Positions 12,608 to 53,200 of a stretch of DNA of 64,000 nt are shown in pieces. This stretch comes from Odontesthes bonariensis (Eukaryota > Chordata > Actinopteri > Atheriniformes > Atherinopsidae): assembly GCF_027942865.1 (NCBI RefSeq), contig NC_134529.1, positions 25,460,467 through 25,524,466 on the forward strand, in the 5' to 3' direction. How positions within the stretch are numbered: the first letter of the stretch is position 1; the number at the start of each line of letters is the position of its first letter. The position numbers and the translations under genes were made by a program. The notes under the pieces are model-generated. The model did no database searches and was not told where the DNA came from. It was given only the letters and a program-made list of their open reading frames with translations.

Positions 12608-12963
12608 ATGGCATTACCAAAGGCAGTACAGTTTGCCGTTATTCTTCTGGTTGTATGCTACAGTCTTGAGAAGCAGGGATACAGAACGTCTTTGACTGTC
12701 TTCTTTGAGGTAAGATTAAGACTTAATATAAAAGGTTGTAGTGCTTACAATGTGAAACTAAAAGGGTTGTGATTTGGCCACATCACAAAACATACTCTAA
12801 GAACTGCTATAGTACACATAGCACTTGTCTATTTATAAACTGGTAAATGGTTGTAGATATTGCTCTTTGTAGCTAGAATGCAGAGTTGAACTCATCTATT
12901 AATTATTCCAGGAACTGATTGGTATCAAAACCTCTAGTCTTCATGGCAGAGAAAAAAGAGCAA
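12608..12963 (+). other. Copy A: signal peptide and furin-like site exons
   Basis: Exon 12608-12709 encodes a short hydrophobic signal peptide ([14 protein letters not shown] core) and ends in phase 0. Exon 12912-12963 ends with HGREKRA, a match to the R-X-K/R-R furin consensus. ADGRF5-type receptors are known to be cut by furin in the ectodomain, so early maturation in the secretory pathway is likely. Both exons are identical in protein sequence in copy B. Confidence 0.75.
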
Positions 12964-15900
12964 GTGAGTCATTGCAAAGAACTTTGACATTCTCTTACTA
13001 GATCTATCCTATCCTTGTTATTGAAGGAAGGATTATCAGTTCAACAGTGATGCAGTATCTCATTATATATTTTTTTTCCAATTCTAGCACTCCCAAATGC
13101 CACTGATTACGAGCTCCAAGTTGTTATAAGCCTCTCTGAACTGGAGAGTCTCAGAGTGCTTTTAAACTCACTCAGCCTACCCATACTGATCAACAGCACT
13201 GCTGAAATTACCAGCATTAACACCACAACAGGTATAACATTCTTATATTTTATCACTCCACTGTTTGCTATAGGTTAGTATTGCATATTCTGACATTACC
13301 TGCAGACATAATCATTAAAAATTGATAATTGTTTGGTTCTGTATTTCTCCATAGTATGTTCATCAAACATGACAGTATACCAGTGCAGATGTGAGGAGAG
13401 CTATGCTTGGTCTTATAACAACTGCATTAGCCATGGAGCCTGTGATCGCATTATTGGTAACACATGTGGATGCATTAATGACCTCCCGGCAGACAACCAA
13501 TACTGCCAGCCAAAACAAACAGGTAGGCCTGAGGGCTGTCACACTATATATAATTTTATTGCATTAGATGTAAAGTACATTTATCCAGGTCTGTGTCTCG
13601 AAATATCTCTAAAGAAGGGTTGTTTTTTTTTGTTTCATTATGCTTTATACTGTTACCCACTACGTTTATCTGTAGTGAAGTCCGAGTAGTGAATATACAC
13701 GGCACCCATCAAAACCCTCTGAGCCTTCAGTGTCTCACTAATTGTATCTCATTTTAGAAGGGTATCAACAGTATTAAACCTGAATTTAACAGCTTGATTG
13801 TTAAATAAAATAAAAAATGTCTGCAAAATTATGATGAATTTGAAAATGTATTATAACTGTCTTTTTGTGTAAAATTAAGCAAAATTATCTTTAAAATATG
13901 GAAGTTTAATGTATTTTCACAGCCACAGTTTTTCATGTTACTTTACATTAAACATGTAAATGTTTCACATCACAGTCAATATCTATAATATTTTTGATGT
14001 TTTCCCATATTTCAAAAGTACTGGAAGAAACTGTAAAATAACATTTGTAATGTACCAGATTTTTTTACAGTACAGATTCAAGGCAGAAATTCCAGTCACA
14101 GCAGTCATGGCTGACTTGTCTTATGTCATAACGTAACAAATAAAATACCGTGTGGACATGTTACAAACTTGGATGACAAGCAAATGTCTAACCAGGATTT
14201 TAAGTCCTGTTCAGGTGCAGCAGAAGTGGTGGACCCAGGAAAAACTTAGTTTTTGTTGACAACAACCTTTCTTTATCAAGTTCACAAAGTGATATAATAC
14301 CAGAGTATCTGTTAGTTTCCTGTTACCTTTCTTTCTTAAAAGGATAAACTAATTCCCATAAACTCAAGTCTGATTAATGCAACTCATTAATACACCATTG
14401 TGGTTACTGATTTCATTTTAAAAGAAAAATGGCTTCTAAGGATTCCAACACAACTTATTTTTTGTTGTTGACACCACTCAGCATCAACAAAAGCCATTCG
14501 AAGCACCAATTGGTATGGCTCATTATTTCTTAAAGATGGCAGTTAGTATGTGAGCTTCTGAATGTTGGCACTTGCACTATAAAATGTGAAGCAAAATTTT
14601 AGATATCTCTCGCTTTTTTATGAATTTAGAATTTATTTTAAGTATGCAGCTTTAATTTAATAAATATAATTATTATAAAGATAATAAATATATTTGACCT
14701 GGAAATCAGTATTTTACTCAAGCTTCTTCTATTTTCCATCATGTAAACTGTACTTAAGCTAAGTTCAACACAGTTTGCCAACCTGGAACCTTTATTCTAA
14801 AATATCCCTGTGAATCTTGGTTTGCAAGATCATGACAAATTGATGTGATGGATTCTCTCCTGCTCACCTCTATAGACCCAGTGGACAATGATGTAGTCCT
14901 TGAATTGCACATCCCGCTCTCCAGTGTGTCATCTGGTTTCATGGACATTTTCAGGAACAATCTGAATAATGTCTCATTCCCCCGAAACATCTCACAGTCC
15001 TTAATATTAGTGGACCTGAACTTCACCACAGGTAAGAACATCTGCTTTTTCATTTACTGATGTTTGGATTTAATCCTGATTGTAAACAGTGTATATACTT
15101 ACATTAATTGAAATGTCTTTATTAGGATGTTATCCAAATTCCACTGGAGGACTGCAGTGCCAATGCGAGGATGAGTATGCCTGGTCATGTAACAAGTGTA
15201 TTGTTTATGGTCACTGCAGTAATACAAGCAGTCAAAGATGTAGCTGCATAAATGGACTTCCTCCTGACAGAGAATTCTGTCAGCCAATCACAGGTAAGCA
15301 TTCCTGTTTAGTAACTGTAATATGAAATATGTATCTTTGTCCACAAAGCTTTTACAAACAGCTCATATGTCTTACATTACAATGTAGTACAGTACAGTTT
15401 TCAGACCCTTTCTAGTTTCCTGCATTTTGTGGTGTTTCAGACTAAACATGACATAGATTCAGTCATTTTTATTCTAATAAATCTACACACTCAAGTTATC
15501 TTCAAAGACACAATGTCTGTTACATGCTTTAGTCAAAATACCACAATGACACAGTACAACAGCTTCCTATTCATCCATGTCTTTAAACATTTTTAAGGTT
15601 AAATACTTAACTTTTAATTTCAGTCTGTACAGAGGATTTGATCTGAAGGCATGTTAAAGGTTAACAATTGTGCTCCTGAAGTTGTTTTTTCCACACACTG
15701 CTTCTGCATGTGGTTTTACCTTTTAATTAATCAGTGATGACAGAGTTAGGGACCATACGTTTTTTAATATAAGTTTATTTTAATTTAAGTTTAACAAGTT
15801 TTATATAAGTATATACATCATATTCATGTGGTGATTCCTATAGAATTTTTGTTTCTGGTTGTAAGTAACACAGGCAAGTTATAAGTAATTAGTAAGAATA

Positions 15901-18900
15901 TTTGAGTGTCTGCATTTCCTCTGTTATATTTCAGTTGGTCAGAGAAATGTGATGTCCTTGATCCGTGTTCAAGGAATGCTTCTACAATCCTTCTTAAGTG
16001 CACATAAGGCAAAAAAATCCTGTTTAAAAATATGTCTCTTAAGTTACCCATACAGTATGTTGGGGTCTCATTCAGTGGTAAATCATCACAATGAATATGA
16101 AATTTGACTTGTTGATTTGAAAAGCTTTGATGAGCATGAGCATGAGATCTTCAGCACTCTGGAGAAGTGACTGTATATTGATGAGAAAAAAAGAGTAATG
16201 AACTGTCCTTATATTGCACGTTTCTAGTCTAGTTATAATGTTATAGGCCACACAGTGCTTTTTTCTTTATGAAACACACTGAAACACCGATTGACACATT
16301 GGAACCACCGTATGTCTTACCCAAGGACAATTTGACATATGGTCCAGGTAAGCTGGGAGTAGAACTGCTGACCTTCTGGTTGGCAGACAACTGATCTTCC
16401 TTTTGGCCTACAGCTACCCAATAGAGTTTGCAATAGAATCTGAAACTCTATTGCAAACTGTGTTAATACACAGATAATAATTATGTCTCAATACTCTGAT
16501 GCTAACTACAATTGAAGGGTGTTTGGTTTCTGACCACCAAATTAAACAATTCTGTTCTGTTTGTTGCTCCACAGATGTCTCTTTATGTCCCACACCACCT
16601 CCTGGTATGAAAAACATTTAGCTTATTTTTACAATTCAACAAATACGGTTAGTAAATATTTTTTTGTTTCAGAACAGCTGAATGGAGTTAGTTGAGCGAC
16701 TTCTATGTTAACTCTGAATTAAACATTCAAACGTGTTTTGAAAAATGCAATCATTACTGGGGCTCCAATACTGTGATTCACCACTGGCAACAAGTGCACT
16801 GATAGCAGCTCCATTTCTATACAAATGATCTACAAATATAAATGTATGCCAATGTATATTTGTGTAAAGAGAGATTAGATAGGGGTCAATAAGAAAGTGC
16901 TGTTACATTTTATTCAGCATAATCCATAGCTGGAATCCTACTGGATCTTTTGACTATACTACATTGGAATTATAACTTGTTTATTAGTCGTAACCTGGTT
17001 GCAGAAAATACATTTCACACAAATGAAAATGAAAATATGAATTGAATAAATTGAATACATTGGGTTATGGACCTATAATTAAAAGTGCAGCCCAAACCAA
17101 CAATATTGATTTTGAGATTTTTCCAACTGGAAAGGTCTCAGTTCAAAAATTATTTTGAATTTATAAAAATGTATAAAATTTATTTTTACTCCAGAAGTAG
17201 AATCTTAAAAACTAATTTCAGACCACAATCATTCTCATCTAAAAAGGTTCCTTTTTCCTGACTGATCACAGCATAACAAATTATTGGTAATTTATCAGAG
17301 GAAACAAACCAAGAGTTTCTCCAACACTTACTTTCTGGAATAACCCCTGTAGCTATTCAACTTTTTATCTAAATCCTTTTTCATGCTTATAAGGCTGATT
17401 GTTTTATTTACAGTGACGATGACCACAGTAACAGCTTTTCCAAACACAACAGCAGCATCTTCTCCAACACCAACTGGTATGACTTGTGAAATGTTAAAGA
17501 TGAAGGTCTGTGTCTAAGACTCTGACTATCGCCACTTGCTCTGTGAACCCCTGCAAAGACTGAACAGCTATCAGAGTATCTCTTGTAATAGTATGGCGTG
17601 ATGATGCAGTTTTGCTCCTGTTCACCTAATCAGAACCCAGTCCTTGATATTATATTTGCAGATCATTTGCTGCGTTTTCTTGTTAATGTTGTTTGATATG
17701 TGTTTGTGCTCCATACCACTTATGTGGTCGTGAGAAAATAAAAAGTGAAGTGAAGTGAATAAGATATCCATGTCATCAGAGTGACATCACAAGTACTGGG
17801 CAAGCTCCATGTCCTGGGGCAATAATCTCTCATAAAGCCTGGAAGCCTCACATTTTTTTTATTTGTTTGTTTGTTGTTTTTTTTTTAATCTTTGGATGAT
17901 TTGTAATAATGTCCTGCAATCTCCTGCAGTTGATTATAGTACTGCAGGAGATTGCAAGCACATTGAGTTGCCTGTGGTATGAAATGCGCTATATGAATAA
18001 AGATCCCTTGCCACATTCATATTATTATTGGTAATGTATTGTAATTTGCTTTTTTGTAGTAGCTTTTTAATTGGCAATTAAAACTGTATTGTTTAGTGTC
18101 CATATGTAGAATAGTTTGTTGAAGAATAAGACTACCAGCAAGCAAGTTAGACTTGCATAATCTGTTACCATTAGTTGTAGCTCGTTCTGAATGGGGAAAA
18201 AGGTGAAAAACCGCGGGGAAAAAAGATACTGCTGTTTTTTTTTATTTTCAGTTATTTCAACAGTGACAACAGTCATGCCAACCTTCTCTACTCTACCGCC
18301 AACTGGCATGATTAATTAAATGTTTCGGATGAACATATTTATTTTTCTTTTCTTCACTGTGGATTTGCTGAACTAAAGAATAATAACTGGCTTTAAACCG
18401 TTTATTTTATTTAGTTTTCTTTTCTTTTCTTTAATTTAATTTTGATTTATCTTATTTTATCTTATTTTATCTTACAGTGACATCAACTACATCAATAATG
18501 ACAACAATGCAAAACATAACATCAAATCTGACAACCACTTTGCCAGTGACTACGACAACAACAGCAACAACAACAGCGCCTGGTAGGAAAATGTTTACTT
18601 TTCTTTTCAATACAGTGGAGTTGCTGAACTAAAGAATAATTACTGGCTTTAAACCGTTTATTTTATTTAGTTTTATTTTATTTAATTTAATTTTGATTTA
18701 TCTTATTTTATCTTATTTTATCTTACAGTGACATCAACTACATCAATAATGACAACAATGCAAAACATAACATCAAATCTGACAACCACTTTGCCAGTGA
18801 CTACGACAACAACAGCAACAACAACAGCGCCTGGTAGGAAAATGTTTACTTTTCTTTTCAATACAGTGGAGTTGCTGAACTAAAGAATAATTACTGGCTT

Positions 18901-21900
18901 TAAACCGTTTATTTTATTTAGTTTTATTTTATTTTACTTAATTTTATTTTGATTGATCTTATTTTATCTTACAGTGATATCAACTACATCAATAACGACA
19001 ACAATGCAAAACATAACATCAAATCTGACAACCACTTTGCCAGTGACTACGACAACAACAGCAACAACAACGCCTGGTAGGAAAATGTTTACTTTTCTTT
19101 TCAATACTGTGGAGTTGCTGAACTAAAGAATAATTACTGGCTTTAAACCGTTTATTTTATTTAGTTTTATTTTATTTTACTTAATTTTATTTTGATTGAT
19201 CTTATTTTATCTTACAGTGACATCAACTACATCAATAATGACAACAATGCAAAACATAACATCAAAGCTGACAACCAATTTGCCAGTGACTACGACAGCA
19301 ACAGCAACAACAACAACGCCTGGTAGGAAAATGTTTACTTTTCTTTTCAATACTGTGGAGTTGCTGAACTAAAGAATAATTACTGGCTTTAAACCGTTTA
19401 TTTTATTTAGTTTTATTTTATTTTATTTTACTTAATTTTATTTTGATTGATCTTATTTTATCTTACAGTGACATCAACTACATCAATAACGACAACAATG
19501 CAAAACATAACATCAAATCTGACAACCACTTTGCCAGTGACTACGACAGCAACAGCAACAACACCAACGCCTGGTAGGAAAGAAAGGTTGGACCTTTTCA
19601 TGAACTTGCCTTTCAAGGAGTCCTACAATACTCCAAGCGATCCATTGTACAAAGCCATTGAAGAAGTTGTAAGTCCTAATTCATTTCTGTCAGTATATTT
19701 TATTTTTAATACACTGTTTCACTGAATGTACAGTATGTGATTATTATTCTACTATTTCTGTGTCTGTTTTTCAAACAGATTAAAAGTAAATGTCGGGAGC
19801 ACATTAAAAATCTACTGTCAGTAAAGCTTCTGAATATCCGGTGAGCTAAGTCTTTTGATTTTACTCTTTAAGTAATTTTTTACTTAGATTATATGTATCT
19901 ATCTATTTATGCAGGAACAGAAAATGAACATACATATCTATATATATACAGATATGTATTTATATGAATTTTCTGTACATATAAACATGGGGCTGCTGCT
20001 CAAGAGTGTGTCTATGTTCTATGTTCTGTACTGACAATGTATTACTTTAGTTACTTTGAAGGGATACAAGGTAGTTTAGCGGCAGTATAGCGATCTCTAT
20101 TGGTCAAACTGAAATTCTACACTGTCATAAAAATGCCCACCTGTACACACCCACTAACTAAACATTGTGGCGAATGGTGCCGTTGTGTTATTTAGTCAGT
20201 GCAGTTAGGTCATCTGATTCACAAGTGTAGACTGCCCACGTAAGATACTACAATCAGAGATTTTCTGAAGAAAGAACTCAAGATAATATGCTATAATCCT
20301 GTTGCTGGAGGAAGTGGCCGGGGACAGCTCGTCTGGGTTTCTCTGCTCAGGCTGCTGTCCCCGCGACCCGATCCCCGGACAAGCGGCAGATAATGGATGT
20401 ATGAATGTATGGATGGACTGTTGCTGATCTTGAATGGGATTCTTCCCTCATCATGGTGTATTCGTGGAGTGATTCCTTTGTATTAGCAGACACTTACAAA
20501 AGTTACATCTTAGACAGATGCGCGCAGGCACTACCAACATACACGCCGCAATAAACGCAGACTAGCTCTATACTATTCCGATTACAATCACAAATTAATC
20601 AATTTTCATTTGTAGATAACTATTCTTGTTCGGATCAAAATGCTATTCTTATTCTAATCAGGTCAGTCCGTGTATTTCTGAAGCTAGGCTACGTCTCGAA
20701 CTCAGGAGGAATTAGAGCACCGTCATCACCTGTCTCTTTACGATCTGAAACGCAGATCACTATGGTAGATGAACAAGATCACGCTTGGAGAAATTTCACA
20801 AACATCGTGCCAACATCGAACGTTTCATATTCAGTCTGTGAAAGGCAGAATATGAAACGCTTGGTGTTGGCTCCTCAACGCAAGCGAACACATAGCCTAC
20901 AACTACAGCTAGCATACAGTACCTAGCTAAGTGCCGTAAACACAAACGACTCTTCTCGCGCATCACGACACTTCAGAAGCGGGTCGCTCCTGTCGAAGTT
21001 ACATATGGGATTTTCAGCATACAGACCCCTGTTGGGAGCGAGACAGGCTTCATTCGCTTACCATTGACTTGTTTAACCTTTGGTAAACTCCTGAAGGCTA
21101 TAACTTTAGGTGAAAATGCTACCTAGTCACTGTGTTTTGATTTTAAGTAAATAAGAACTTTTAGTTTATTTCTATTTTATTTTTGCTGTTATTTGCACTG
21201 TCAGAAGCTGGTGAGAAACAACATTTAATTTTGGACTGTGTATTTTTGTAAGTACCATATGAGATGACAATGAAGAATTGTAATAATTTGATCATTATTG
21301 TTATAATAGATTCTTTAAGTGATTGGTTAATGATGATTAACAATGATGCTCTTGAGTAGATATGATATGCTTCTAAATATTATGTCTCCTAGTGATGGAG
21401 TTTTCATTTGGATTCTATTCTGTATTGCAGGAATGGAAGCACAATTGCTCAGTATGAAGTTGAAGCTCCTTTTATCAATGCTGAAGAAATTGAAAATGTA
21501 AAAACTGGGATATTTGGTGAGCTGGCTAAAAGCTACTCAATGATATATGAAGGTAAGACAGTCTAATAAATTTTTTGCGCTTTCTAAATAGCCATACTCA
21601 GACATACCTGATCTTTGTGTCAGAAACATTCTGTAATAATTTCATGACTTTTGTGTCCTTCTCATAAAGGCGGGACTTTAGACTTTTATCCAAACAAAAC
21701 TTTTTTCTTTGGACAAACTATGATTGTGAAGTGTGGACCTCCACCACAGAATTTAGGTAAAAACTGGACAGCTGAGTGGACACGTAATAGCAAACTCATA
21801 GTTTTTGATGACCAACACACTGTTTCAGAAGAAAATGGACAATCGAATTTAACTGTGAAGAGTTTTTTAAAAGGTGATGAAGGTAAGAAATAAATGGAGT

Positions 21901-24900
21901 ATGTTATGGTACATAGTTTCCTTCCCAAAATACACACATCTAAAATGGACATGTTGCTTGAGACTTTTATTTGAGGTCTGACCTAATTGGTTTGCCATTG
22001 CAACCATGGTTTATTCTGACGCAATGCCCCAAAATAGATATAGATAGATACAATGTACTATCTGTTGTAAAAATATATTTATTTATTTTTTGTACAAACT
22101 AGCGGCTGAACTATTAACCTTGTTGCAGTAAAGACAAAATCTCGAATCTCTGTTGCAATTTGAGTAATACACTGTTCCACTGCTGCACTGATCAAGTTAT
22201 TAACTATCTAGCTTGTCCACCACTAGAATTCCTACTGATTCTTGTTACTGTCCAGAATATTAAGAATACACTTACCATCTTTTGAGATAATCAACAATAT
22301 TCAAACCAGTTAAAGCAAAACGTGTGGTGTGTTTACCGTCAGGCCATCGTATTTGTATTTTTGTACATTGTACTATGATGATGATGATAATTGTCTTTCA
22401 TTTCAGGACTTTATGAATGTAAGTTGAAATTTGGAGAGTCATATTTCAGACAGACAGGAGAGCCCAAAGCAGAGGAAAAACCTGATATCCTAGTGAAACC
22501 ACTCAAACGTCTTGTGCATTGTAAAAATGAATCTGTGACGCTGGAATGCTCCGTTAATGGTACCTATAAAGTCAAGTTTAAAGACTTTGGGCAAGGTAAA
22601 TGTCCCACAGTCCAAAGGCAATTACAGTATGTTAGATTGATTGGTGACTCTAAACTGGCTGTTTGGTTCTCTGTCTTTGTGTGTTAGCCCAGTAAATGAC
22701 TGGTAACCTGTTTTATCTCTCTTCTGGCCAAGTGTCAGGCTGTGATGGGTTCTGGCTCCTTGGGTTAAGGGATGGATGGATGGATGGATGGATGGATGGA
22801 TGGATGGAAAGATCAAATATTTATACTGCACTACTCGCCAAAAGTTAACTTTTGTCAATGTTTTCATTTAGTTCTGGGTAACAAGATCACCTATGAGTAC
22901 GTAATACCTAGGAACTGTACTAATGGGACCCAAATGTTCAGCTGTCAATTGGAAAACAAGACATTAGTTGAACGTAACATCACACTGGACTTCACCGAAA
23001 CCGGTGAATACTTATCCAAACATTTGAACATTTAGCATTTAATGCTATCCAGATAAAGATATGTCAAAGTAATGATAAAAGTATTCTTTTAAGGTGAATT
23101 AAAACTTTTCTTTTTTTCAGATTTTGTATGCTTCGATGATGTCTATGGTAATGGAATATTAGATTTCAAAGCTGAGGTACCTTGTGAGGAAAACAAAGTT
23201 GGAAAAAAGACAGCAGTCTGTTCTGCAGATGGTACCTATGTAAAAAAACAAGACAACTGTGTCCTGAAAGAAGTTCAGAAACTGCTCGATCAGTCTAAGG
23301 TGACATTCTTCTGCTGTTTCTGGCACCAAATGATAGCATGCACAATGCAAAATCAGGCAGGTGGCATGTTGTGCCCATATGTATAATGAATGTTGTAAGT
23401 TTGTTCAAATGTAAATATTTTAAAGAATTTCATGGGGGCAAACAATATTTCAACCTTTTGGTGATCAGACATAACAAAGCAGTTGATTCTATGGATCTAT
23501 GGATATTTCACTATTTTTGGAACAGATAATGAATATGAAAAGGTAATGTGTTAAAGACAGCATGAAACTTTAAAGTCATGACGAAATCATTCTCAGTGTA
23601 CAGGCCACAATTTAAAAACTAGCCTGCATTTCATGTACTGCAGATTCCCACGAAAACAGAAGGTGATCAATATGCTCTCACTAAATTAATGTAATAATTT
23701 TCCAAACAATTTTTCAAACACTGATGGCTGATAATAAAATGATAAAATTCAGTCTTTAAAGCAATTAAAATGAGACCCCTGAAAATGATGAAAATGAGAC
23801 TGCAACTCAGAACTTTCTTCCATCAGCATTAGCGTTTTAACTGTGGCCAGTTCAAGGACAAACAATAACTAAATCTTTTTCTCTCAACCGTCACAGAGTC
23901 TAACTGCAGAAAGACTGCCAGAATTCTTGGAGCAACTCAGCAAAGTCACTGTGAGCAACGCAGTAGGTGTAACTGACTCTCCTGCCACCATTAAAGCCAT
24001 TGTTTCCATATTTGAAAATGTAGCCAAAGCAACTTTAACATCAAAGATCCTGATAAATAGTAACTTAATGGAGGTAAGTGAATGTATGTGATTACTAAAA
24101 ATGAATGGTTTACATATGCCAAGCAACACAGACTTTTGGATCTAATATTTTCCCTTTTTGTTTATTTGCTTTCCAATTTAGGATGTCTTGTTAACTGCAG
24201 GTGTTCTCACCAGTGAGAACGCAACAAATTCATGGGTGACTCTGAACAGTGATACCACAAACAATATAAAAACAAAAAGTAACCACTCTGAACCCACAAG
24301 TTTCAGCTCATCCTTCTTACAGTCGCTTGAGAATATTACAAAAAGTCTAAACAATGAGTCCTTTAACATTGCCACAGATTTTATTCTCTTGAACAAAACT
24401 ACATTCACTGACAGCTTTAATGAGGAGTTTGATTCCTCAGTGGAGATAGAAATATCAGAAGCTGATGGAGGAAGGAAGTCAATCACTGTGATAACATTTT
24501 TCTCCATGGATAATGTGCTCCCTGCAAGAGAAGAAGCCAATTCATCGTTTAATTCTATCAATGGAAGGGTTGCACTTATTCAGTCAAGTGGCAAAATCAA
24601 TAATATCTCAATAACCTTTGATACTCTAAATGATAATCTGGGGAATCCTAAATGTGTTTTCTGGAACTTCAATCTCTTAGATGGTCTCGGAGGATGGGAC
24701 GATGAGGGCTGTTCCTTGGTAGTCTTTAAAAATAAAACCGTCAGCTGCAACTGCAACCATCTCACCTCTTTCTCCATCCTTATGTCACCAAAAAGTCCTA
24801 AAAACCTTCCTTTGGACATCATAACCTACATTGGAGTTGGCATATCCATGGCTTCTTTGGTCATTTGTCTCATCATTGAAGCTGTTATATGGAGAAAAAT

Positions 24901-26612
24901 AAGAAGGAACACTACATCTTACTTGCGTCATGTCTCCATCGTTAACATCGCTGTGTCTCTCCTGATTGCAAACATCTGGTTTATTGTCGGGGCGTTCATT
25001 TCCGAAGCAGATCAGGCAAATCCACCAGCATGCAGTGCAGCAGCCTTTTTTATCCATTTTTTCTATCTATCCCTGTTCTTCTGGATGTTAGCCTCAGCTT
25101 TGCTGCTGTTCTACCGCACAGTCAGCGTCTTTGACGGGTTGTCTAAAACGGCAATGTTGGCTATTGGATTCTCTCTCGGATATGGTGTACCTCTCATCAT
25201 AGCAACAATAACCATAGCTGTCACTGCACCCAAAGAAGAATACATCAGAGATATTGAGGTCTGCTGGCTTAACTGGGACGAGTCCAGAGCTCTGTTGGCA
25301 TTTGTGGTCCCTGCACTGTTAATAGTGCTGATAAACTTCATAATCCTGGTTGTGGTGGTATACAAAATGTTGAGGAGAAGGGTTGGGGCAAGTGCTGCAC
25401 AAGCAGCCGAAAAACATGTGCTGGTGGTTATTGCCAGATGTTTGGCTGTGCTCACACCATTCTTTGGATTAACTTGGGGTTTGGGAGTTGGAATCATGAT
25501 CGACCCAACAAATAATGGAATCCATATTACATTTGCATTCTTCAATTCATTGCAGGTACAAATTTATTACCTTTGAATATTGATCTGTATATCATATTGT
25601 TTAATGATGTTTTTCTTTTATCACCAAATCCCTCAGAGTTGACATTACTTTGTGTCTTTAGGGTTTCTTCATTTTGGTATTTGGAACACTGTTGGACAAA
25701 AAGGTATGTCTAAATATTGAAATTTTTAACCAACTTTATTTTACTAACTTTTAAGAAACATCCACCTCTACTCATACTTTTGAAAATGTGTAACTAAAGT
25801 TTTATATATGAATGAATGATTCCAGTAGAGTTATGGTGTTTATATTACAAAGTGATCTGCTAGGATTCAAATCTAATCAGTAAAAGGCTAAATGCTTTTA
25901 ACAGAAATTTTATTCATTCACAAACCAACCACAAGTAGTTGTTAAAATACTGCTACAAAATTTCTCCTACTGAAATCATACCTGAATGTTTAAGTTTCTC
26001 CATGCTGCAAAAGACCAGTGCAGTAATGAGGCTTCACCATTTCTTTCAAGTGTATGCATGAGTTTTTAAAGCGGCACACAAACTTTTGAGAATTAACTTT
26101 TCAGGTGCGGTCTGAATTAACATCAACGTCACAAACTTCCCAGAGTCGCACAGCGGTAAGAACAGTTTTTCCAATCATGTCTGTTGTTGTTGTTTTTGGT
26201 AATTCTTTGTTTGCTTTTTGAGGTGGTGTTTTATTTTTTACTTTTGCTTTCATTTTAGAGCACCAGTGCTGGATTTTCATTCAGCAATCTGAGAATTTTC
26301 AGGAAATTGAGACCAAAAAGAGGTACATCAGTCATGAATAAACTGAGGCTAAATTTAATAGCATGTTTAATATTTTTGGACATTTTATGCTCCTGTCCAA
26401 AACTTGGGTACAGGCAGAAATCAACTATTGGATTTATCATCTTGAACTTTTGACAGGCTTACTTTTAGATTTATAGCCTCTTGTACTATTACTTTATCTG
26501 CTGTTGTATTATTTTGCCTAAGACAGAATGATGTTTGTTTGTTGCAGGTTCTTCAAGTGGCTTAAATGTGTCCTCAAATGCATCTGAATCTCAGTCATTC
26601 GCCAACACTTAA
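12608..26612 (+). CDS. ADGRF (group VI, ADGRF5-like) adhesion GPCR, copy A
   Basis: I rebuilt 26 exons by splice sites and phase: 12608-12709, 12912-12963, 13088-13231, 13355-13522, 14876-15031, 15126-15293, 16575-16604, 17414-17476, 18252-18305, 18478-18582, 18729-18833, 18975-19076, 19218-19322, 19469-19668, 19779-19840, 21431-21552, 21670-21882, 22407-22595, 22872-23003, 23121-23299, 23897-24073, 24182-25555, 25662-25703, 26105-26155, 26259-26322, 26548-26612. They sum to 4224 nt with no stop, about 1407 aa. Order: signal peptide (1-24), furin-like REKR (near 47-50), two SEA-like/EGF-like pairs (51-263), mucin region (264-490), SEA (490-579), two Ig-like domains (580-757), Cys-rich segment (758-817), GAIN/GPS (818-1085), 7TM and Ser-rich tail. 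GPS cleavage is predicted between L1070 and T1071. The 7TM resembles ADGRF5 (GPR116). The exact paralog name is uncertain, as is inclusion of exon 18252-18305, which has a GC donor. Confidence 0.85.
13088..15293 (+). other. Copy A: two SEA-like/EGF-like exon pairs
   Basis: Pair 1 is 13088-13231 plus 13355-13522; pair 2 is 14876-15031 plus 15126-15293. The second exon of each pair is 168 nt and encodes a six-or-more-Cys module with the pattern CxCE-YAWS--C then CGCI/CSCI-LP-D--(Y/F)CQP, which is characteristic of ADGRF ectodomains. All four exons are phase 1-1, so pairs can be added or lost without changing frame, as seen on comparison with copy B. The 1.35-kb intron between the pairs has no recognised feature. 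Confidence 0.75.
17915..17956. repeat. Intronic perfect 16-bp inverted repeat
   Basis: TGCAATCTCCTGCAGT at 17915-17930 and its exact reverse complement at 17941-17956 are separated by a 10-nt loop. It lies just before a LINE/SINE-like tail (GAAATGCGCTATATGAATAAA). The hairpin is kept in copy B near 46231-46273, so it probably belongs to an older repeat. Confidence 0.7.
18478..19668 (+). repeat. Copy A: tandem array of five mucin-type exons
   Basis: Five repeats of 243-251 bp each hold one exon with its flanking intron. Exons: 18478-18582, 18729-18833, 18975-19076, 19218-19322 and the start of 19469-19668. Each 102-105-nt exon encodes about 35 residues rich in Thr and Ser with NIT/NLT sequons ([16 protein letters not shown]). 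All are phase 1-1. The last exon reads through its old donor position into the SEA domain start ([18 protein letters not shown]), so it is a fusion exon. Copy B has fewer repeats. Such sequence normally forms a heavily O-glycosylated stalk. Confidence 0.85.
19469..21552 (+). other. Copy A: SEA domain exons
   Basis: The 3' part of 19469-19668, then 19779-19840 and 21431-21552 encode a SEA-type fold: a hydrophobic strand, SPLYKAI-type helix start, [10 protein letters not shown], then [13 protein letters not shown], which is the characteristic strand after the SEA turn. The SEA domains of mucins and ADGRF receptors can self-cleave at a G-S site in this turn; here N-G-S-T is present. The large intron 19841-21430 contains a RTE-type LINE tail near 20300-20420. 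Confidence 0.7.
20057..21122. repeat. Intron insertion in copy A with RTE-like LINE tail
   Basis: About 1.07 kb present in copy A but absent from the same intron of copy B (junction near 53528). The middle (about 20300-20420) resembles the 3' tail of fish RTE-type LINEs: CCCGCGACCCGATCCCCGG, an AAGCGG block, then ATGGATG repeats. I could not define target duplications, so the whole block may be composite, or a deletion in B. Confidence 0.5.
21670..23003 (+). other. Copy A: two Ig-like domain exons
   Basis: Exons 21670-21882, 22407-22595 and 22872-23003 encode two Ig-like domains. Domain 1 has IVKCGPP, the WTAEW core tryptophans, NLTVKSF and the closing DEGLYEC motif across an exon boundary. 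Domain 2 has SVTLECSV and FSCQLEN. ADGRF5 also carries Ig repeats between its SEA and GAIN domains. These exons are the fastest-diverging part between the two copies, although the introns next to them are nearly identical. Confidence 0.8.
22770..22808. repeat. ATGG microsatellite in receptor intron
   Basis: (ATGG)n, longer than the equivalent tract in copy B (58451-58476), at the end of an old LINE-like tail (GTTCTGGCTCCTTGGGTTAAG). Confidence 0.85.
23897..25555 (+). other. Copy A: GAIN/GPS and 7TM exons
   Basis: Exon 23897-24073 opens the GAIN domain. The 1374-nt exon 24182-25555 carries the rest of the GAIN, the GPS and most of the 7TM. The GPS has CVFWNF, GCSL, then CNCNHLTSF; the HL|T self-cleavage point falls at nt 24763/24764 and frees a TSFSILMS tethered peptide. 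TM segments start near 24823 ([11 protein letters not shown]). Conserved family features include [37 protein letters not shown] and [10 protein letters not shown] in TM6. The end of TM7 is on the next small exon (25662-25703). Confidence 0.92.
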
Positions 26613-27386
26613 TATGTGCATTAAACATTTGTCAATTTAGAAAGAAAAGCAGTGAAGCAAAACCAGCCCTTTATTTTTCTTCATTGCGGCCAAAATCATT
26701 CAAAAGTATCTAGTGTGTGATGTTACATTCTAAAAGAGTTTGGTTTGATTTGTCTTTTTTTTTCATCTTTCTTTTTTCAAAAAATGAAGAAAACATTGTA
26801 AAACTATGTATCATCAACTATATATCTTGAAAAAGTGTACTTGTCTGAAAGCTGCTGACAACTTGTCATGTACACCAGCCAAATGTTTTAATATTATATG
26901 TTTAATTTTGACAGTTAGGTGATGCAGTGATCCACGTGAAAACCTATGTTGATTGTGTTGTTGTTGAACGTTGATTGTGATATTCAATACAGGTTATGTT
27001 CAGTCGCACTGTCTTGCACAAAACTAAACAGATGCACTTTATGAAAGCTCTGTTTTAATTTGTTTTGTTTGAATTTTAAAAAGACCAGCTGTTATTTTGT
27101 AGTGTGATTGTCTTACTTTTACCTACTTTTGTTGTGATAATGAGTGGCACACTAATATTAAATGTACCCTGTCAATGCTATGCCTGGAGATATTAATATG
27201 TTGTTGCATGTACAGTTAAGCCCCAAATTATTCATATCCATGCCAAATTCAGATATCTGTTGAATTCCTAATTGACCAATAGTTTCTGTCCGAGTGGAAC
27301 TAATAGAAAGAAGTCAAAAACAAAGCAAGGAACTGTTTTACAGATGCCAGTGAAAACGTTTCATGTTTTGTTTTAGATTTGGGAGA

Positions 27387-27392: not shown

Positions 27393-27423
27393 AAGTCATG
27401 GCCTTTCAATACATTTCTTTTAT

Positions 27424-43204: not shown

Positions 43205-44191
43205 ATGGCATTACCAAAGGCAGTACAGTTTGCCGTTATTCTTCTGGTTGTATGCTACAGTCTTGAGAAGCAGGGATACAGAACGTCTTTGACTGTCTTC
43301 TTTGAGGTAAGATTAAGACTTAATATAAAAGGTTGTAGTGCTTACAATGTGAAACTAAAAGGGTTGTGATTTGGCCACATCACAAAACATACTCTAAGAA
43401 CTGCTATAGTACACATAGCACTTGTCTATTTATAAACTGGTAAATGGTTGTAGATATTGCTCTTTGTAGCTAGAATGCAGAGTTGAACTCATCTATTAAT
43501 TATTCCAGGAACTGATTGGTATCAAAACCTCTAGTCTTCATGGCAGAGAAAAAAGAGCAAGTGAGTCATTGCAAAGAACTTTGACATTCTCTTACTAGAT
43601 CTATCCTATCCTTGTTATTTAAGGAAGGATTATCAGTTCAACAGTGATGCAGTATCTCATTATGTTTTTCCAATTCTAGCACTTGCAAATGCCACTGAGT
43701 ACGAGCTCCAAGTTGTTATAAGCCTCTCTGAACTGGAGAGTCTCAGAGTGCTTTTAAACTCACTCAGCCTACCCATACTGATCAACAGCACTGCTGAAAT
43801 TACCAGCATTGACACCACAACAGGTATAACATTCTTATATTTTATCACTCCACTGTTTGCTATAGGTTAGTATTGCATATTCTGACATTACCTGCAGACA
43901 TAATCATTAAAAATTGATAATTGTTTGGTTCTGTATTTCTCCATAGTATGTTCATCAAACATGACAGTATACCAGTGCACATGTGAGGAGAGCTTTGCTT
44001 GGTCTTATAACAACTGCATTAGCCATGGAGCCTGTGATCCCATTATTGGTAACACGTGTTTGTTGAAATATTGTTGAAAATGTTAATTTTCTAAAGGATA
44101 AAGTATATGCGATTAAAATGCGATTAATTTCGATTAATTAATTTCAAAGCCTGTAGTTAACTCGATTAAAAATTTTAATCGAGTCACAGCC

Positions 44192-44230
<39 letters not shown>

Positions 44231-47200
44231 TATTCAATGTGGTGATTCCAATAGAATTTTTGTTTCTGGTTATAAGTAACACAGGCAAGTTATAAGTAAT
44301 TAGCAAGAATTTTTGAGTCTCTGCATTTCCTCTGTTATATTTCAGTTGGTAAGAGAAATGTGATGTCCTTGATCTGTGTTCTAGGAATGCTTCTACAATC
44401 CTTCTTAAGTGCACATAAGGCAAAAAAATCCTGTATAAAAATATGTCTCTTAAGCGCAGTTACCCATACAGTATGTTGGGGTCTCAGTCATTCAGTGGTA
44501 TATCATCACAATGTATATGAAATTTGACTTGTTGATTTTAAAACTTTTGAGCATGAGATCTTCAGCACTCTGGAGAAGTGACTGTATATTGATGAGAAAA
44601 AAAAAGAGTAATGGACTGTACTTATATTGCACGTTTCTCGTCTAGTTATAATGTTATAGGCTACACAGTGCTTTTTTCTTTATGACACACTGAAACACCG
44701 ATTGACACATTGGAACCACCGTATGTCTTGCCCAAAGACAATTTGACATATGGTCCAGGTAAGCTGGGAGTAGAATTGCTGACCCTCTGGTTGGCAGACA
44801 ACTGATCTTCCTCTTGACCTACAGCTACCCAATAGAGTTTGGAATAGAATCTAAAACTCTATTGCAAACTGTGTTAATACACAGATAACAGTTATGTCTC
44901 AATACTCTGATGCTAACTATAATTGAAGGGTGTTTGGTTTCTGACCACCAAATTAAATAATTCTGTTCTGTTTGTTGCTCCACAGATGTCTCTTTATGTC
45001 CCACACCACCTCCTGGTATGAAAAACATTTAGCTTATTTTTACAATTCAACAAATACGGTTAGTAAATATTTTTTTGTTTCAGAACAGCTGAATGGAGTT
45101 AGTTGAGCGAATTCTATGTTGACTCTGAATTAAACATTCAAACGTGTTTTGAAAAATGCAATCATTACTGGGGCTCCAATACTGTGATTCACCACTGGCA
45201 ACAAGTGCACTGATAGCAGCTCCATTTCTATACAAATGATCTACAAATATAAATGTATGCCAATGTATATTTGAGAGAGATTAGATAGGGGTCAATAAGA
45301 AAGTGCTGTTACATTTTATTCAGCATAATCCATAGCTGGAATCCTACTGGATCTTTTGACTATACTACATTGGAATTATAACTTGTTTATTAGTCGTAAC
45401 CTGGTAGCAGAAAATACATTTCACACAAATGAAAATGAAAATGAAAATATGAATTGAATAAATTGAATACATTGGGTTATGGACCTATAATTAAAAGTGC
45501 AGTCCAAACCAATAATATTTATTTTGAGATTTTTCCAACTGGAAAGGTCTCAGTTCAAAAATGATTTTGAATTCATAAATGTGTGTGAAACACAATCAAA
45601 ATGCCCCTAAAACTTATTTTTACTCCAGAAGTAGAATCTTAAAAACTAATTTCCAACCACAATCATTCTCATCAAAAAGGCTCCCTTTTCCTGACTGATC
45701 ACAGCATAACAAATTATTGGTCATTTATCAGAGGAAACAAACCAAGAGTTTCTCCAAAACTTACTTTCTGGAATAACCCCTGTAGCTATTTAACTTTTTA
45801 TCTAAATCCTTTTTCATGCTTATAAGGCTGATTGTTTTATTTACAGTGATGACGACCACAGTAACAGCTTTGCCAAACACAACAGCAGCATCTTCTCCAA
45901 CACCAACTGGTATGACTTGTAAAATGTTAAAGATGAAGGTCTGTGTCTAAGACTCTGACTATTGCCACTTGCTCTGTGAACCCCTGCAAAGACTGAACAG
46001 CTATCAGAGTATCTCTTGTAATAGTATGGCCTGATGATGCAGTTTTGCTCCTGTTCACTTAATCAGAACCCAGTCCTTGAATAAGATATCCATGTCATCA
46101 GAGTGACATCACAAGTACTGGGCAAGCTCCAAGTCCTGGGGCAATAATCTCTCATAGAGCCTGGAAGCCTCACATTTGTTTTGTTTGTTTGTTTTGTTTT
46201 TTTAAATCTTTGGATGATTTGTAATAATGTCCTGCAATCTCCTGCAGTTGATTATAGTACTGCAGGAGATTGCATACCACAAGCATTGAGTTGCCTGTGG
46301 TATGAAATGTGCTATATGAATAAAGATGCCTTGCCTTGCCTTGTCACCATTCATATTATTATTGGTAATGTATTGTAATTTGCTTTTTTGTAGTAGCTTT
46401 TCAATTGGCAATTAAAACTGTATTGTTTGGTGTCCATATGTAGAATAGTTTGTTGAAGAATAAGACTACCAGCAAGCAAGTTAGGTTTGCATAATCTGTT
46501 ACCATGAGTTGTAGCTCGTTCTGAATGGGAAAAAGGTGAAAAACTGCAGGGAAAAAAGATACTCCTGTTTTTTTTATTTACAGTTATTTCAACAGTGACA
46601 GCAGTCATGCCAACCTTCTCTACTCTACCGCCAACTGGTATGATTAATTAAATGTTTCGGATGAATGTCTGTTTGGTGTGCTTCTGGAGGCTGGTACTTG
46701 CAATGTGAAGGTGTTAGAGTATCTGTCATAACAACTTGGCCTTTTTAATGTTTGCCTGAAGGTTCATGCAACTTGAACATGTAGATTATAACTTCAACTT
46801 CATACAAATATGTTACATTATGATAAACATTACCAAAGGGGATTTGTGCAGTAAACAATGCCAGTATTGTGGGAATAGAGTGGGTAAGAATTATGGAAAA
46901 CGGATTCTGATATAATGTTTCTGCTCATGTGGTTTCATGTGATTGTGATCAAAAGATGATGGAGTCACTCCTGTTCACCTCAACAGATCCTTTGGACACT
47001 GTCGTAGTTCTTGAGTTGCGCATTCCAGTTTCCAGCGTGTCATTAGATTTCACTAGAAATGCTCTGCAAAATTCCTCCTTCCCCGACAACCAATATTTAA
47101 AAGTGATGGACTTAAACTTCACCGCAGGTAAGTATGTCATGGTTTACTTGCTGGTCCATCTCCTTTATTAAACTGAATACTGATCATAAAAAATTTTTTT

Positions 47201-50200
47201 TTATATTTTAAAATGTCTTTAAAAGCATGCTATCCAAACTCAACTGGAGGAATGCAATGTCACTGTGAGGATCAGTTTGCTTGGTCATGTGACAAGTGTG
47301 CCAACTACGGTGAATGTAGTAATGCAAGCAAACAAACCTGTGGGTGTATAAATTATCTTCCTGTTGATGGAGAGTTCTGTCAACCAATCACAAGTAAACA
47401 TTACTATTTTGTAGCTATGGAAATAAAAGCTTCAACGCATTAGGTAAAATTGTTTTAGTAGAAATGGTAATATCTTGATCTTTATTGTTGCTCCATAGGT
47501 ATTGCTCCATGTTCACCATCAACTCGTGGTAGGAATAATGTTATTTTCTGGGGGGTTTTCTATATTGTGTAGTTGCTCATTTTAAGAATATTTATTGATT
47601 TTGAACAATCCTCATTTTATCTCTTTTATCTTATTTTGCAGTGACCCCAACTACATCAGTGATTACAACCACACTGCCAATGACTTCGATAACAACACCA
47701 ACAACACCAACAACACCAACGCCTTGTAGGAAAAATATTTCCTTTTCTTTTCTTCACTGTGGCTAAAGAATAATTACTGGCTTTAAACCGTTTATTTTAT
47801 TTAGTTTTCTTTTCTTTCATTTAATTTTGATTTATCTTATTTTATCTTACAGTGACATCAACTACATCAATAATGACAACAATGCAAAACATAACATCAA
47901 AGCTGACAACCACTCTGCCAATGACTACGACAACAACAGCAACAACAACAACGCCTGGTAGGAAAATGTTTACTTTTCTTTTCTTCACTGTGGAGTTGCT
48001 AAACTAAAGAATAATAACTGGCTTTAAACCATTTATTTTATTTAGTTTTCTTTTCTTTTCTTTAATTTCATTTTGATTTATCTTATTTTATCTTACAGTG
48101 ACATCAACTACATCAATAATGACAACAATGCAAAACATAACATCAAAGCTGACAACCACTCTGCCAATGACTACGACAACAACAGCAACAACAACGCCTG
48201 GTTGGAAAATATTTCCTTTTCTTTTCTTCACTGTGGAGTTGCTAAACTAAAGAATAATTACTGGCTTTAAACCGTTTATTTTATTTAGTTTTATTTTATT
48301 TTATTTTACTTAATTTTATTTTGATTGATCTTATTTTATCGTACAGTGACATCAACTACATCAATAACAACAACAATGCAAAACATAACATCAAAGCCAA
48401 CAACCACTTTGCCAATGACTATGACAACAACAGCAACAACACCAACGCCTGGTAGGAAACAAAAGTTGGACCATGTCATGAACTTGCCTTTCAAGGAGTC
48501 CTACAATACTCCAAGCGATCCATTGTACAAAGCCATTAAAGAAGTTGTAAGTCCTAATTCATTTCTGTCAGTATATTTTATTTTTAATACACTGTTTCAC
48601 TGAATGTACAGTATGTAATTATTATACTACTATTTCTGTGTCTGTTTTTCAAACAGATTGAAAGTAAATGTCGGGAGCACATTAGAAATCTACAGTCAGT
48701 AAAGCTTCAGAATATCCGGTGAGCTAAGTCTTTTGATTTTACTCTTTAAGTAATTTTTTACTTAGATTATACGTATCTATCTATCTATTTGTGCGGGAAC
48801 AGAAAATGGACATACATATCTATACATATATATATATATAGATATATATATATATATATATATATATCTATATATTGTGGAAGTTGCCTTTTGGCGAAAA
48901 GATGAGCCGAAAACTTCTCACATTAAGACTCTGTGAGTCGCGTTTATTAACTGACAAAAACTCACAGTTCCAACTGACAAAAACTGACAGTTCCAACTGA
49001 CAGCTCGCGCATCAACAGAACAGCTGTTATCATGAAACGTCACCAGATCTCTTAAAGAGACCGCAACTATTAAATGCATCATAACATTAAAGACGATGAA
49101 CCAACAACATAACAGATAACAGAACACATATAAGAAAGTGAATTATGCCGTCAGTGTTGAGAGCACTACACATGCCCCCCCAGAATTTACTCTAACAGAA
49201 AACCTGATAAAAAAAAATCAACGGCGTGGGGGGCGAATCAAACGTCCAGTGCGGCTCCGCCGAATTTGAGAGTGCGGAACCGCCCCCTCAGTGGCTGTCT
49301 GTGGGGCTCCCCTGCGGCATGGTCGAGGGGCAGGAGGAACGGAAAGGGGGGGCCTAGTCAGAGGCCGTCCCCGTTTTGGGGGCTGCGCCAACTCAACTGG
49401 CCTGGCCAGATCAAGGTGAGCTGGTTTAAGGCTTTCCACAGAAATACACTCCGGTTTGCCCCCAATGTCCACCACAAAGTGCTTGTCCCCAGTTTCCACA
49501 ACATGGAAAGGGCCCTCGTAAGGCGGACGGAGAGGTCCGCGGTGCCCATCCACACGAATGAAAACATACCCAGCAGACTGTAGGCCACTGGGGACGTTAG
49601 AGTTTGGTAGACCATGGCAGGAGGTAGCAAGTGGAGCAAACAGCTTGGCATTGTCTAACAGGCTGGAGCGCTGGAGTGTGGCTGACCAAGGGGTCGTGGT
49701 GCTGGGGACGAAATCCCCAGGGACCCGCAGTGGCTGACCGTAGACCAGCTCTGCGGAGGAGGCCTGGAGGTCTTCCTTCGGCGCTGTCCTGATGCCCAGC
49801 ATGACCCATGGGAGCTTGTCAGCCCAGGAACTGTCCTTCAGGCTGGCACGCAGGGAGGCTTTCATGGACCTGTGAAATCGTTCACAGAGGCCATTGCTCT
49901 GGGGGTGGTAGGCCGTGGTGCGGTGGAGTTTAACTCCCAAGCTCCCTGCGACAGCGTTCCAAAGCTCGGAAGTAAACTGTGTGCCACGGTCTGAGGAGAT
50001 GTCTGAAGGGGCGCCAAAACGGGACACCCAGGTGCCAATAAATGCCCGTGCCACGTCCGCTGATGTTATGGATGACAGTGGAACAGCCTCTGCCCACCGT
50101 GTGGTCCTGTCGACCATAGTGAGTACATGAGTGTAACCCTGCGAGGGTGGAAGTGGGCCAACTAGGTCGATGTTGACGTGGTCGAAACGTCGTTCAGGCA

Positions 50201-53200
50201 CTTGAAATTGTTCCAGTGGCGCTTTGGTGCGGCGGTGTACTTTGGCACGTTGGCACTCTACACAGGTGTTCGCCCAGTCCCTCACGTCCTTTTTAAGTCC
50301 GTGCCACACAAACTTTGCTGCCACCAGCCGTTGTGAGGCCTTGGTTCCGGGGTGTGAGAGGCTATGGATGGCGTCGAAAACAGGCCGCCTCCACTTCGCA
50401 GGCACAACAGGCCTAGGGGAGCCCATAGAGATGTCGCAAAGCAGAGTGGTGCCAGCGTCGTCGAATGCCACATCCTGAAGCTGCAGCCCAGTAGCGGATG
50501 AACGGCAAGCCTGCACGTCCGGGTCTGTGGCCTGCTCCGTTGCCATGCTGCCGTAGTCCAAACCGAGGTGGACCGCCCCCGCAACAGCACGGGAGAGGCA
50601 GTCAGCAACCTGGTTGTGCTTCCCAGAAAGGTGTGCAATGTCCGTCGTGAACTCTGAGATGTAAGTCAGCTGCCGCTGTTGCCTGCCGGACCATGGCTGA
50701 GTGACTTTGGACATGGCGAAGGTCAGAGGCTTGTGGTCCACAAAAACGGTGAACTGGCGTCCTTCCAGCAGTGAACGAAAGTGTCGGATGGCGAGGTACA
50801 CTCCAAGTAGCTCCCGGTCGAAAGTGCTATACTTCCGTTCACTGGGACGTAACTGCCTGGTGAAAAAGGCGAGAGGCTGCCAAGCATTACCCACCCACTG
50901 CTCGTAAACCGCACCGACCGCGTAGTCCGAGGCGTCCGTGGTAAGTGTGATTGGGGCAGAGGAGGCGGGATGGGCCAACATGGCAGCCTTAGCCAGGGCT
51001 GTCTTAGCGTCCACAAGAGCCTTGTCTCTTTCCGGGTTCCAGTCCACAGTGTGCTTAGGCTTGGCACCTTTCAGAGCCTCGTACAGGGAATGCATAGTTT
51101 GGGCAGCCCTGGGGAGAAAACAGTGGTAAAAGTTAACCATGCCAAGGAACTCCTGTAAGGCTCTGACAGTGACTGGGCGTGGAAAAGTGGTGATGGCCTC
51201 CACTTTTGACGGAAGGGGAACAACCCCGTCCTTCATGACTCTGTGCCCCAGAAAGTCTATGGTGGACCGACCGAACTCGCACTTGGCTGGATTGATGATG
51301 AGCCCGTGCTCGGTAAGTCGCTCGAACAGAGTGCGAAGGTGCGAAAGGTGCTCTGGAGGTGATGAACTGGCCACGAGGATATCGTCAAGGTACACAAACA
51401 GAAAAGGCAGATCCCGTAACACAGAGTCCATGAGACGCTGGAATGTTTGAGCAGCATTTTTGAGCCCAAATGGTGTGCGCAGGAACTCAAACAAACCAAA
51501 CGGTGTGATTACAGCTGTTTTTGGAATGTCGCGAGGGTGTACGGGCACTTGATGGTTTCCTCTGATCAGGTCCACCTTCGAAAACATGACCTTACCAGCC
51601 AGGTGTGCTGAAAAATCCTGGATGTGCGGCACTGGGTAGCGGTCAGGCGTTGTCGCGTCGTTGAGCCGTCGGTAGTCCCCGCAAGGACGCCAGCCCCCCC
51701 CTGGTTTGGGGACGAGGTGTAGGGGAGAGGCCCAAGGACTGTTGGAGCGTCGAACAATCCCCAGGCGCTCCATGGACTCGAACTCTGTCTTGGCTACGGC
51801 AAGCTTGTTCGGCTCGAGGCGTCGAGCGCGGGCGTACACAGGTGGGCCAGTGGTGTCGATGTGGTGCTCTACACCGTGCTTGGCTGTAGAAGAGGAGAAA
51901 GTGGGCTGGGTGAGTGCTGGAAACTCGGCGAGCAGCCGTTGGAAACTGTCCGTGACAGAGAGCAGGCTGGAGAGGTGTTCTGCACCAGAGTCGCTGAGCG
52001 CGCAGGCATAAGAACAGAAAGTGACGGCGTCGATCAAGCGCTGATTTTTAACGTCCACTAACAGTCCAAATGCACACAAAAAATCTGATCCTAAGAGGGG
52101 AACAGCGACTTTGGCAGTCACAAAGTCCCAGCCGAAGCATTGGCCGTCAAAACACAGTTCAACATGCCTTGTGCCGTATGTACGGATAGGGCTTCCATTG
52201 GCGGCTTCCATGGGGGGGCCGTGGGTGTCAGCCACCACGTCCACCTGTGAAGCAGGAAGTAGACTCCGCTGTGCCCTTGTGTCGCAGAGGAATCGCCGGC
52301 CGGAGATGGAGTCGTGGATGAAGAGCAGCCCGCCGGCATGGCCGACGCTCACGGCCACTAGTGAGCGCCGGCCTTGGCGTTTCCCGCTCCACTGAAGTTG
52401 CATGGAGAGCGGCATCGTTTGGCCTTGGGGCCAAACCTGGCATGGTAGTAGCACACACCTGAAGACTGCTGCCGACGCGGGGCTGCTGCTGCGATGAGCA
52501 TGTGATCATCAGATATTTCTGATACAGCAACAGCACCAGCAGGAAGAAGGGCAGCTGCGCAGAGCTGTTGACTAGCCAGGAAACACTTGTCAGCCTCAGC
52601 AGCCAGTTCTCTACAATCAGCTCTGGCAGTGTTGGCCAAAGCAGCTCTCACATGAGCAGGCAGTTGGCGCAGGAAAAGGTGGAGGAAAAGGAAATCTGGC
52701 TTGTTGTCACCGAGCAGATCGAGCATTCGGTCCATTAGCTCTGAGGGCTTGCTGTCACCGAGCCCTTGAAGAGAGAAAAGCCTGCTAGCCCTCTCTGTGT
52801 CAGATAGTTTGAATGTTTTCAGTAAGTATTCTTTCAGAGTTTCATACTTTCTCGTCAGAGGAGAACGTTTAAGAAGGCTCACTACTCTCGATGCCGTAGA
52901 ACTTCCGAGAGCAGATACCACATAGTGGTATTTCGTTTCGTCGGCCGTTATCTGACGCAAGGCAAACTGTGCCTCAGTCTGAGCGAACCAGGCAGAAGAA
53001 GACGATTCCCAGAATTCGGGGAGCTTGAGAGACACAGCGTTTGCGGTCATGGCGATCTGGATACGTCCAGTAAACAAACGTCGGGGTCACCAGTGTGGAA
53101 GTTGCCTTTAGGCGAAAAGATGAGCCGAAAACTTCTCACATTAAGACTCTGTGAGTCACGTTTATTAACTGACAAAAACTCACAGTTCCAACTGACAAAA

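What the first reader, a model, noticed from the sequence alone, without database searches (positions are those of the whole stretch)
21670..23003. Ig-domain exons diverge much more than their flanking introns between the two receptor copies
Hand counts against copy B (54086-58676): exon 21670-21882 differs at about 26 of 213 sites (12%), exon 22407-22595 at about 18 of 189 (10%), exon 22872-23003 at about 26 of 132 (20%), nearly all changing amino acids. The intron between the first two has about 2 differences in 315 bp where alignable, nearby introns about 2-5%, the preceding SEA exon 2 of 122, and the 7TM exon about 3%. Exons evolving faster than adjacent introns is the opposite of the normal pattern. 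It suggests diversifying selection on ligand-binding Ig domains, or gene conversion that homogenised the introns but not the exons.
Basis: seen in the sequence. Interest (0 to 1): 0.82.

Follow-up and report, generated by a model that had tools for sequence, protein, structure and literature searches.

The report
Fast-evolving Ig exons in duplicated receptor
Two neighbouring copies of what looks like a fish adhesion-receptor gene are nearly identical in their non-coding DNA but strongly different in the exons for their outer immunoglobulin domains, which points to selection for protein change; one copy now carries a stop codon.

Summary
Between tandem copies A and B of an ADGRF (group VI) adhesion GPCR gene, the three Ig exons differ at 26/213, 18/189 and 26/132 sites, against 80/3914 (2.0%) for non-coding sites of 21125-27655. 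No run of aligned non-coding sites of equal length reaches those counts. Of 178 Ig codons, 50 change meaning (one to a stop) and 3 are silent-only; dN/dS is 2.8-3.3 (p 0.002-0.007), though singly only the third exon is significant. A's Ig region has nine N-glycosylation motifs, B's none; 33 of 49 replacements change charge, against 18 expected. Non-coding divergence is patchy (0.5% to 4.5%), so gene conversion probably also acted. Best reading: selection for amino-acid change, preserved against conversion. The pattern is known from primate opsins and snake-venom genes, and selection in fish ADGRF5 duplicates is published, so this is a new member of a known kind. No related species was available; direction and timing stay open.

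The parts
12608..26612 (+). copy A: intact 26-exon, 1407-aa adhesion GPCR gene (ADGRF family), modelled from splice sites and frames
   Evidence: spliced model has one stop, at the end; 24 introns GT-AG and one GC-AG
21670..21882 (+). Ig exon 1, copy A (B: 54086-54298)
   Evidence: 26/213 differences; 19 codons change meaning (one to a stop), none silent-only; 0/200 in the flanking 100 bp each side
22407..22595 (+). Ig exon 2, copy A (B: 58088-58276)
   Evidence: 18/189; 13 residue changes, 3 silent-only codons
22872..23003 (+). Ig exon 3, copy A (B: 58545-58676)
   Evidence: 26/132; 18 residue changes, no silent-only codon; dN/dS 7.3-8.7
23897..24073 (+). start of the GAIN region, copy A (B: 60242-60418): a fourth fast exon
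   Evidence: 19/177; 13 residue changes, 1 silent-only codon
   Evidence: 2/122; no SEA match in Pfam
24182..25555 (+). GAIN/GPS/7TM exon, copy A (B: 60527-61900)
   Evidence: 39/1374; dN 0.033-0.034, dS 0.017-0.018; Pfam 7tm_2 and GPS in the protein
54175..54177 (+). in-frame TAA in Ig exon 1 of copy B (AAA in A)
58099..58101 (+). cysteine of YEC in A changed to serine in copy B
43205..62957 (+). copy B of the gene, with insertions in introns that A lacks and a fourth exon that matches A only up to about 44055

Best explanation
Copies A and B are tandem duplicates of one ADGRF adhesion receptor gene. After duplication, amino-acid change was selected in the Ig exons and in the first GAIN exon, changing charge and N-glycosylation motifs. 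Gene conversion between the copies reset the non-coding DNA in patches, while selection kept or rebuilt the differences in those exons. Copy B later acquired a stop codon in its first Ig exon and may be decaying or skipping that exon. Shown: the exon-confined excess of replacement changes, few silent changes, uneven non-coding divergence, the stop. Inferred: conversion, the selective agent (a ligand, partner or microbe at the Ig surface) and the order of events.
For: Replacement changes in the Ig exons exceed the more diverged non-coding stretch 15802-24181 (150/4520) with one-sided p 2e-19. ML over the Ig codons: dN/dS 2.83 at kappa 1.5 and 3.28 at kappa 2.5, LRT against 1 p 0.0071 and 0.0018. 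50 codons change meaning, 3 are silent-only. Charge-changing replacements 33/49 against 18.3 expected, 0 of 2000 simulations as high; motifs 9 in A and 0 in B, random-swap test 0.002. In the Ig region both copies are equally far from the closest paralog that I compared (46/176 identical each; 5 sites put the change on B, 5 on A), so both changed. No further copy with Ig exons was found in the genome (at E 0.01). Same pattern with the same explanation in human red/green opsin exon 5 (PMC3924837, passages).
Against: Taken singly only Ig exon 3 rejects dN/dS = 1 (p 0.004-0.010); exon 1 gives p 0.10-0.15, exon 2 p 0.32-0.45, exon 23897-24073 p 0.33-0.41. By counting, replacement against silent change in the three Ig exons has p 0.04 only. 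ML dS is above the 2% non-coding rate: p 0.03-0.04 for the Ig exons and p 0.005-0.007 with exon 23897-24073 added, which fits older exons beside homogenised introns; against the 3.3% baseline the counted silent changes (8/111, rounded up from 7.5) give p 0.055. The stop in B means that B is not now under selection as a full receptor unless the exon is skipped. No orthologs or population data were available.
Confidence: 0.66

Rival explanations
1. The copies were once two long-lived alleles of one locus under balancing selection, joined in tandem by unequal crossing over; the exon peak is an allelic peak.
For: Divergence peaks at the Ig and first GAIN exons and falls to 0.66% downstream, as around a balanced site.
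Against: Introns 1 and 2 beside the first Ig exon are the least diverged segment (3/635), whereas linked sites should be raised; 15802-18333 upstream is at 3.5% (78/2254) without an Ig exon.
Confidence: 0.13
2. Old, neutrally diverged exons whose introns alone were homogenised by gene conversion.
For: Patchy non-coding divergence; ML dS above non-coding, p 0.03-0.04 for Ig and 0.005-0.007 with exon 23897-24073.
Against: Replacement changes exceed silent ones per site 2.3-fold by counting and 2.8- to 3.3-fold by ML; neutral exons should give 1. Conversion tracts would have to end at exon edges by chance.
Confidence: 0.1
3. Exon pieces were imported from a diverged donor (segment switch or cDNA-templated conversion).
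For: Change is confined to exons, and 14 of 50 changed Ig codons differ at two or three bases; ASSET in snake-venom genes is described for a like pattern (PMC2474615, passages).
Against: No donor found: one search finds A and B only; one search finds A, B, a fragment without Ig exon, and three weak matches (69-78%) to intron-3 sequence. The changes are scattered, not a solid foreign block.
Confidence: 0.06
4. Copy B is a pseudogene and its exons simply decay without constraint.
For: TAA in Ig exon 1, a lost Ig cysteine, FGLTW changed to FGSTW, a truncated fourth exon; of 50 differing residues from 23121 on, 21 are informative, 14 changed in B and 7 in A.
Against: Neutral decay should not exceed the intron rate; Ig dN is about 5 to 9 times the non-coding baselines. 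The 14:7 split is not significant (p 0.19), and in the Ig region it is 5:5.
Confidence: 0.05

Closest known systems
Human red/green opsin genes, exon 5 (Teshima and Innan model, as reviewed in PMC3924837)
   Same: duplicates (about 24 kb apart there, passage) with low intron divergence and a divergence peak in an exon that carries functional change
   Different: there two residues are known to set function; here 50 Ig codons change, function is unknown and one copy has a stop
Snake-venom three-finger toxin genes (ASSET; PMC2474615, which also cites accelerated coding change in PLA2 genes)
   Same: introns more alike than exons between paralogs; change of surface charge
   Different: venom genes with short exon segments replaced; here a membrane receptor pair with scattered substitutions
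Fish ADGRF5 under positive selection, with duplication on the Clupeocephala branch (PMC8584163)
   Same: fish ADGRF duplicates with a signal of positive selection
   Different: reported per branch from a branch-site screen; here one close pair, resolved by exon and with intron control
Zebrafish group VI-like genes g6l1-5 (PMC4335454)
   Same: group VI adhesion GPCRs labelled gpr110- or gpr116-like
   Different: described as apparently zebrafish-specific; orthology to this pair was not tested

Membership tests
ADGRF (group VI) adhesion GPCR | secretin-type 7TM domain and GPS motif | tested here: met
   Pfam 7tm_2 E 2.5e-36, GPS E 7.6e-16
ADGRF (group VI) adhesion GPCR | closer to ADGRF than to other adhesion GPCRs | tested here: met
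   among solved structures, GAIN-to-7TM matches ADGRF1 at E 7e-112, the next receptor type ADGRL3 at 2.5e-38; Pfam ADGRF3_N E 2.1e-26, two stretches; no tree was built
ADGRF (group VI) adhesion GPCR | Ig domain in the extracellular region (ADGRF5-like; recalled) | tested here: met
   I-set E 9.5e-7 and Ig_3 E 5.5e-7, both over their cut-offs, for the first Ig; the second Ig is by eye only
ADGRF (group VI) adhesion GPCR | SEA domain (recalled) | tested here: inconclusive
   no Pfam SEA match up to E 1
Divergence peak kept by selection against gene conversion | exon divergence above flanking introns in tandem copies | tested here: met
Divergence peak kept by selection against gene conversion | orthologs closer than paralogs in the exon, the reverse in introns | not testable with these tools
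   no related genome is held for G000 (stated)
ASSET / exon segment switch | blocks replaced by unrelated sequence | tested here: not met
   scattered substitutions, no indels in the Ig exons

The most novel reading that the evidence does not exclude
Selection moved the sugar coat between paralogous receptors: A carries nine N-glycosylation motifs in its Ig region and B none, while in the GAIN region B has five that A lacks and A one that B lacks. The broken copy B may persist as a donor of Ig variants for A by gene conversion, so that pseudogene and receptor together form a small germline diversification system.
Probability: 0.12. Interest if true: 0.75.

Novelty: new member of a known kind. 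Interest (0 to 1): 0.5.

Why it matters
Intron controls a few bases away make this a clean case of exon-confined protein change in an adhesion GPCR. It names residues (charge and glycosylation sites) with which to look for what the Ig domains of these receptors bind.

Tried and rejected
Third copy as donor: the protein search of the whole genome gave 8 matches, all exons of A or B. The DNA search also gave 8: A, B (two pieces), a fragment without Ig exon (two pieces) and three weak matches (69-78%, 77-173 bp) to intron-3 sequence. Within 100 kb either side tblastn at E 0.01 found only A and B. Outgroup: the closest paralog among the loci that I compared (C29:25231000-25240000) is too distant in the Ig region to polarise (40 of 50 changed sites match neither copy). 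Dating the element in B by its terminal repeats (4 mismatches over the 295-base copy) against the 0.66% flank gave p 0.13, so it does not prove conversion. The silent excess of exon 24182-25555 over the downstream flank (6/315 against 50/7587, p 0.02) was not pressed; it too would fit introns and flank reset by conversion.

Papers: only listings or passages were seen, no whole paper. The terms 'introns more conserved', 'exons' and 'accelerated evolution' together gave 0 papers. Listings of 6 of 7,391 and 12 of 18 showed no ADGRF title. A search with ADGRF and N-glycosylation terms listed 12 of 37; by title and abstract start none reports this case. Other listings: 20 of 605, 8 of 36, 12 of 127, 6 of 32. 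This says nothing of papers outside those listings.

Left out of counts: alignment gaps, B-specific insertions, stretches of A outside the seven aligned blocks (13468-15801, 17648-17755, 18334-19573 with the T-rich repeats, 19966-21124). 19966-20057, which does align to B, was left out too. The first alignment gave 7/523 for intron 2, with false mismatches at an insertion edge; the separate-block alignment gave 3/635 for introns 1 and 2. The 80/3914, the dN-against-2% tests and the chi-square use the first alignment.

Full report
Location. The window is G000:C29:25460467-25524466 of a 945-Mb genome in 187 contigs. A self-comparison shows a tandem duplication: A about 12 to 33.4 kb, B about 42.5 to 69.7 kb, the latter running past the window.

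The gene. Copy A splices into an intact 26-exon frame of 1407 aa at 12608-26612. It contains two ADGRF3_N-type stretches and an Ig I-set match, a GPS and a secretin-type 7TM domain, and from GAIN to 7TM it matches solved ADGRF1 far better than other solved adhesion GPCRs. The gene model rests on splice sites and frames, not on transcripts.

The observation. Aligned site by site, the Ig exons differ at 26/213, 18/189 and 26/132 (12.2, 9.5 and 19.7%), exon 23897-24073 at 19/177, the preceding exon at 2/122 and the 7TM exon at 39/1374. Non-coding sites differ at 80/3914 for 21125-27655 and 217/13136 for the aligned blocks of the duplication. No run of aligned non-coding sites of equal length reaches the count of any of the four exons; the maxima are 16, 15, 13 and 15.

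Selection. Of 178 Ig codons 50 change meaning and 3 are silent-only; in exons 1 and 3 it is 37 to 0. Counting gives dN 0.165 and dS 0.071, replacement against silent p 0.04. ML gives dN 0.176-0.186, dS 0.057-0.062, dN/dS 2.83-3.28, p 0.0071-0.0018. Singly, only exon 3 is significant. ML dS lies above the 2% non-coding rate (p 0.03-0.04 for Ig; 0.005-0.007 with exon 23897-24073), so the exons may be somewhat older than the DNA beside them. One-sided Fisher tests of replacement changes against the more diverged non-coding stretch 15802-24181 (150/4520) give p 2e-19 for the three exons together, and 1e-8, 2e-4, 3e-13 and 2e-5 for exons 1, 2, 3 and 23897-24073.

Nature of the changes. Charge changes in 33 of 49 replacements, against 18.3 expected from random mutation of A; 0 of 2000 simulations reached that. 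The null does not model surface position, so part of the excess may mean only that exposed sites change. A has nine N-X-S/T motifs in the Ig region, B none. From A, 50 random changes leave 5.1 on average and none in 0.1% of 3000 runs; from B, they create 0.8 on average and at most 5 in 3000 runs; swapping A and B states at random gives a difference of nine or more in 0.2%. In GAIN the motifs are 8 in A and 12 in B; one is A-only and five are B-only (Fisher against Ig p 0.002). These tests were chosen after seeing the data, and a motif is not proof of a glycan.

Mosaic. Non-coding divergence is 1.7% at 12023-13467 (17/1029), 3.5% at 15802-18333 (78/2254), 3.7% at 19574-21430 (20/541), 0.5% in introns 1 and 2 (3/635), 4.5% in introns 3-6 (49/1090) and 0.66% at 25556-33387 (50/7587). 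Eleven non-coding segments differ at p 1e-8. Patchy gene conversion is the simplest reading but was not shown directly. The first Ig exon lies in the most alike of these stretches, with 0/200 differences in the 100 bp on each side.

Copy B. B has TAA at 54175-54177, a cysteine-to-serine change at 58099-58101, FGLTW changed to FGSTW in the 7TM exon (that this motif is conserved is recalled) and a truncated fourth exon. The first Ig exon is 213 bp, so skipping it would keep the frame. Where the distant paralog is informative, 14 changes fall on B and 7 on A from 23121 onward (p 0.19), and 5 and 5 in the Ig region. So A probably changed too, and decay of B does not explain the excess.

Known work. 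[quoted passage not shown] PMC2474615 (passages) describes exon change with similar introns in venom genes. PMC8584163 (passages) reports positive selection in fish ADGRF5 after duplication. PMC4335454 (passages) reports five group VI-like genes that appear zebrafish-specific. PMC13197933 (passages) notes that N-glycosylation affects adhesion-GPCR cleavage and trafficking. I therefore file this as a new member of a known kind.

Noticed in passing
C29:25417371-25417733 (L014), 43 kb upstream of the window: A fragment joins the distal part of intron 2 to part of intron 3 with Ig exon 2 missing, flanked by a repeat. In intron 2 it is closer to B (1 difference, against 3 from A, in 185) and has the repeat at the same point as B; in intron 3 it is closer to A (2, against 8 from B, in 180). 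Perhaps carried there by the repeat.
   Followed up: partly
18478-19573: Five tandem copies of a Thr-rich, mucin-like exon with its intron (about 250 bp each) in copy A; in B three full matches and a partial one.
   Followed up: partly
14876-15293 and 46957-47413: Exon pairs of the same ADGRF3_N-like type at different places in A and B, only 69% alike, as if each copy kept a different one.
   Followed up: partly
48876-53411: An insertion with direct terminal repeats (retroelement-like; no domain search made) in an intron of copy B, absent from A.
   Followed up: no
1470-8086: A 3.1-kb tandem repeat at 99% identity, also matching parts of 39068-42572.
   Followed up: no
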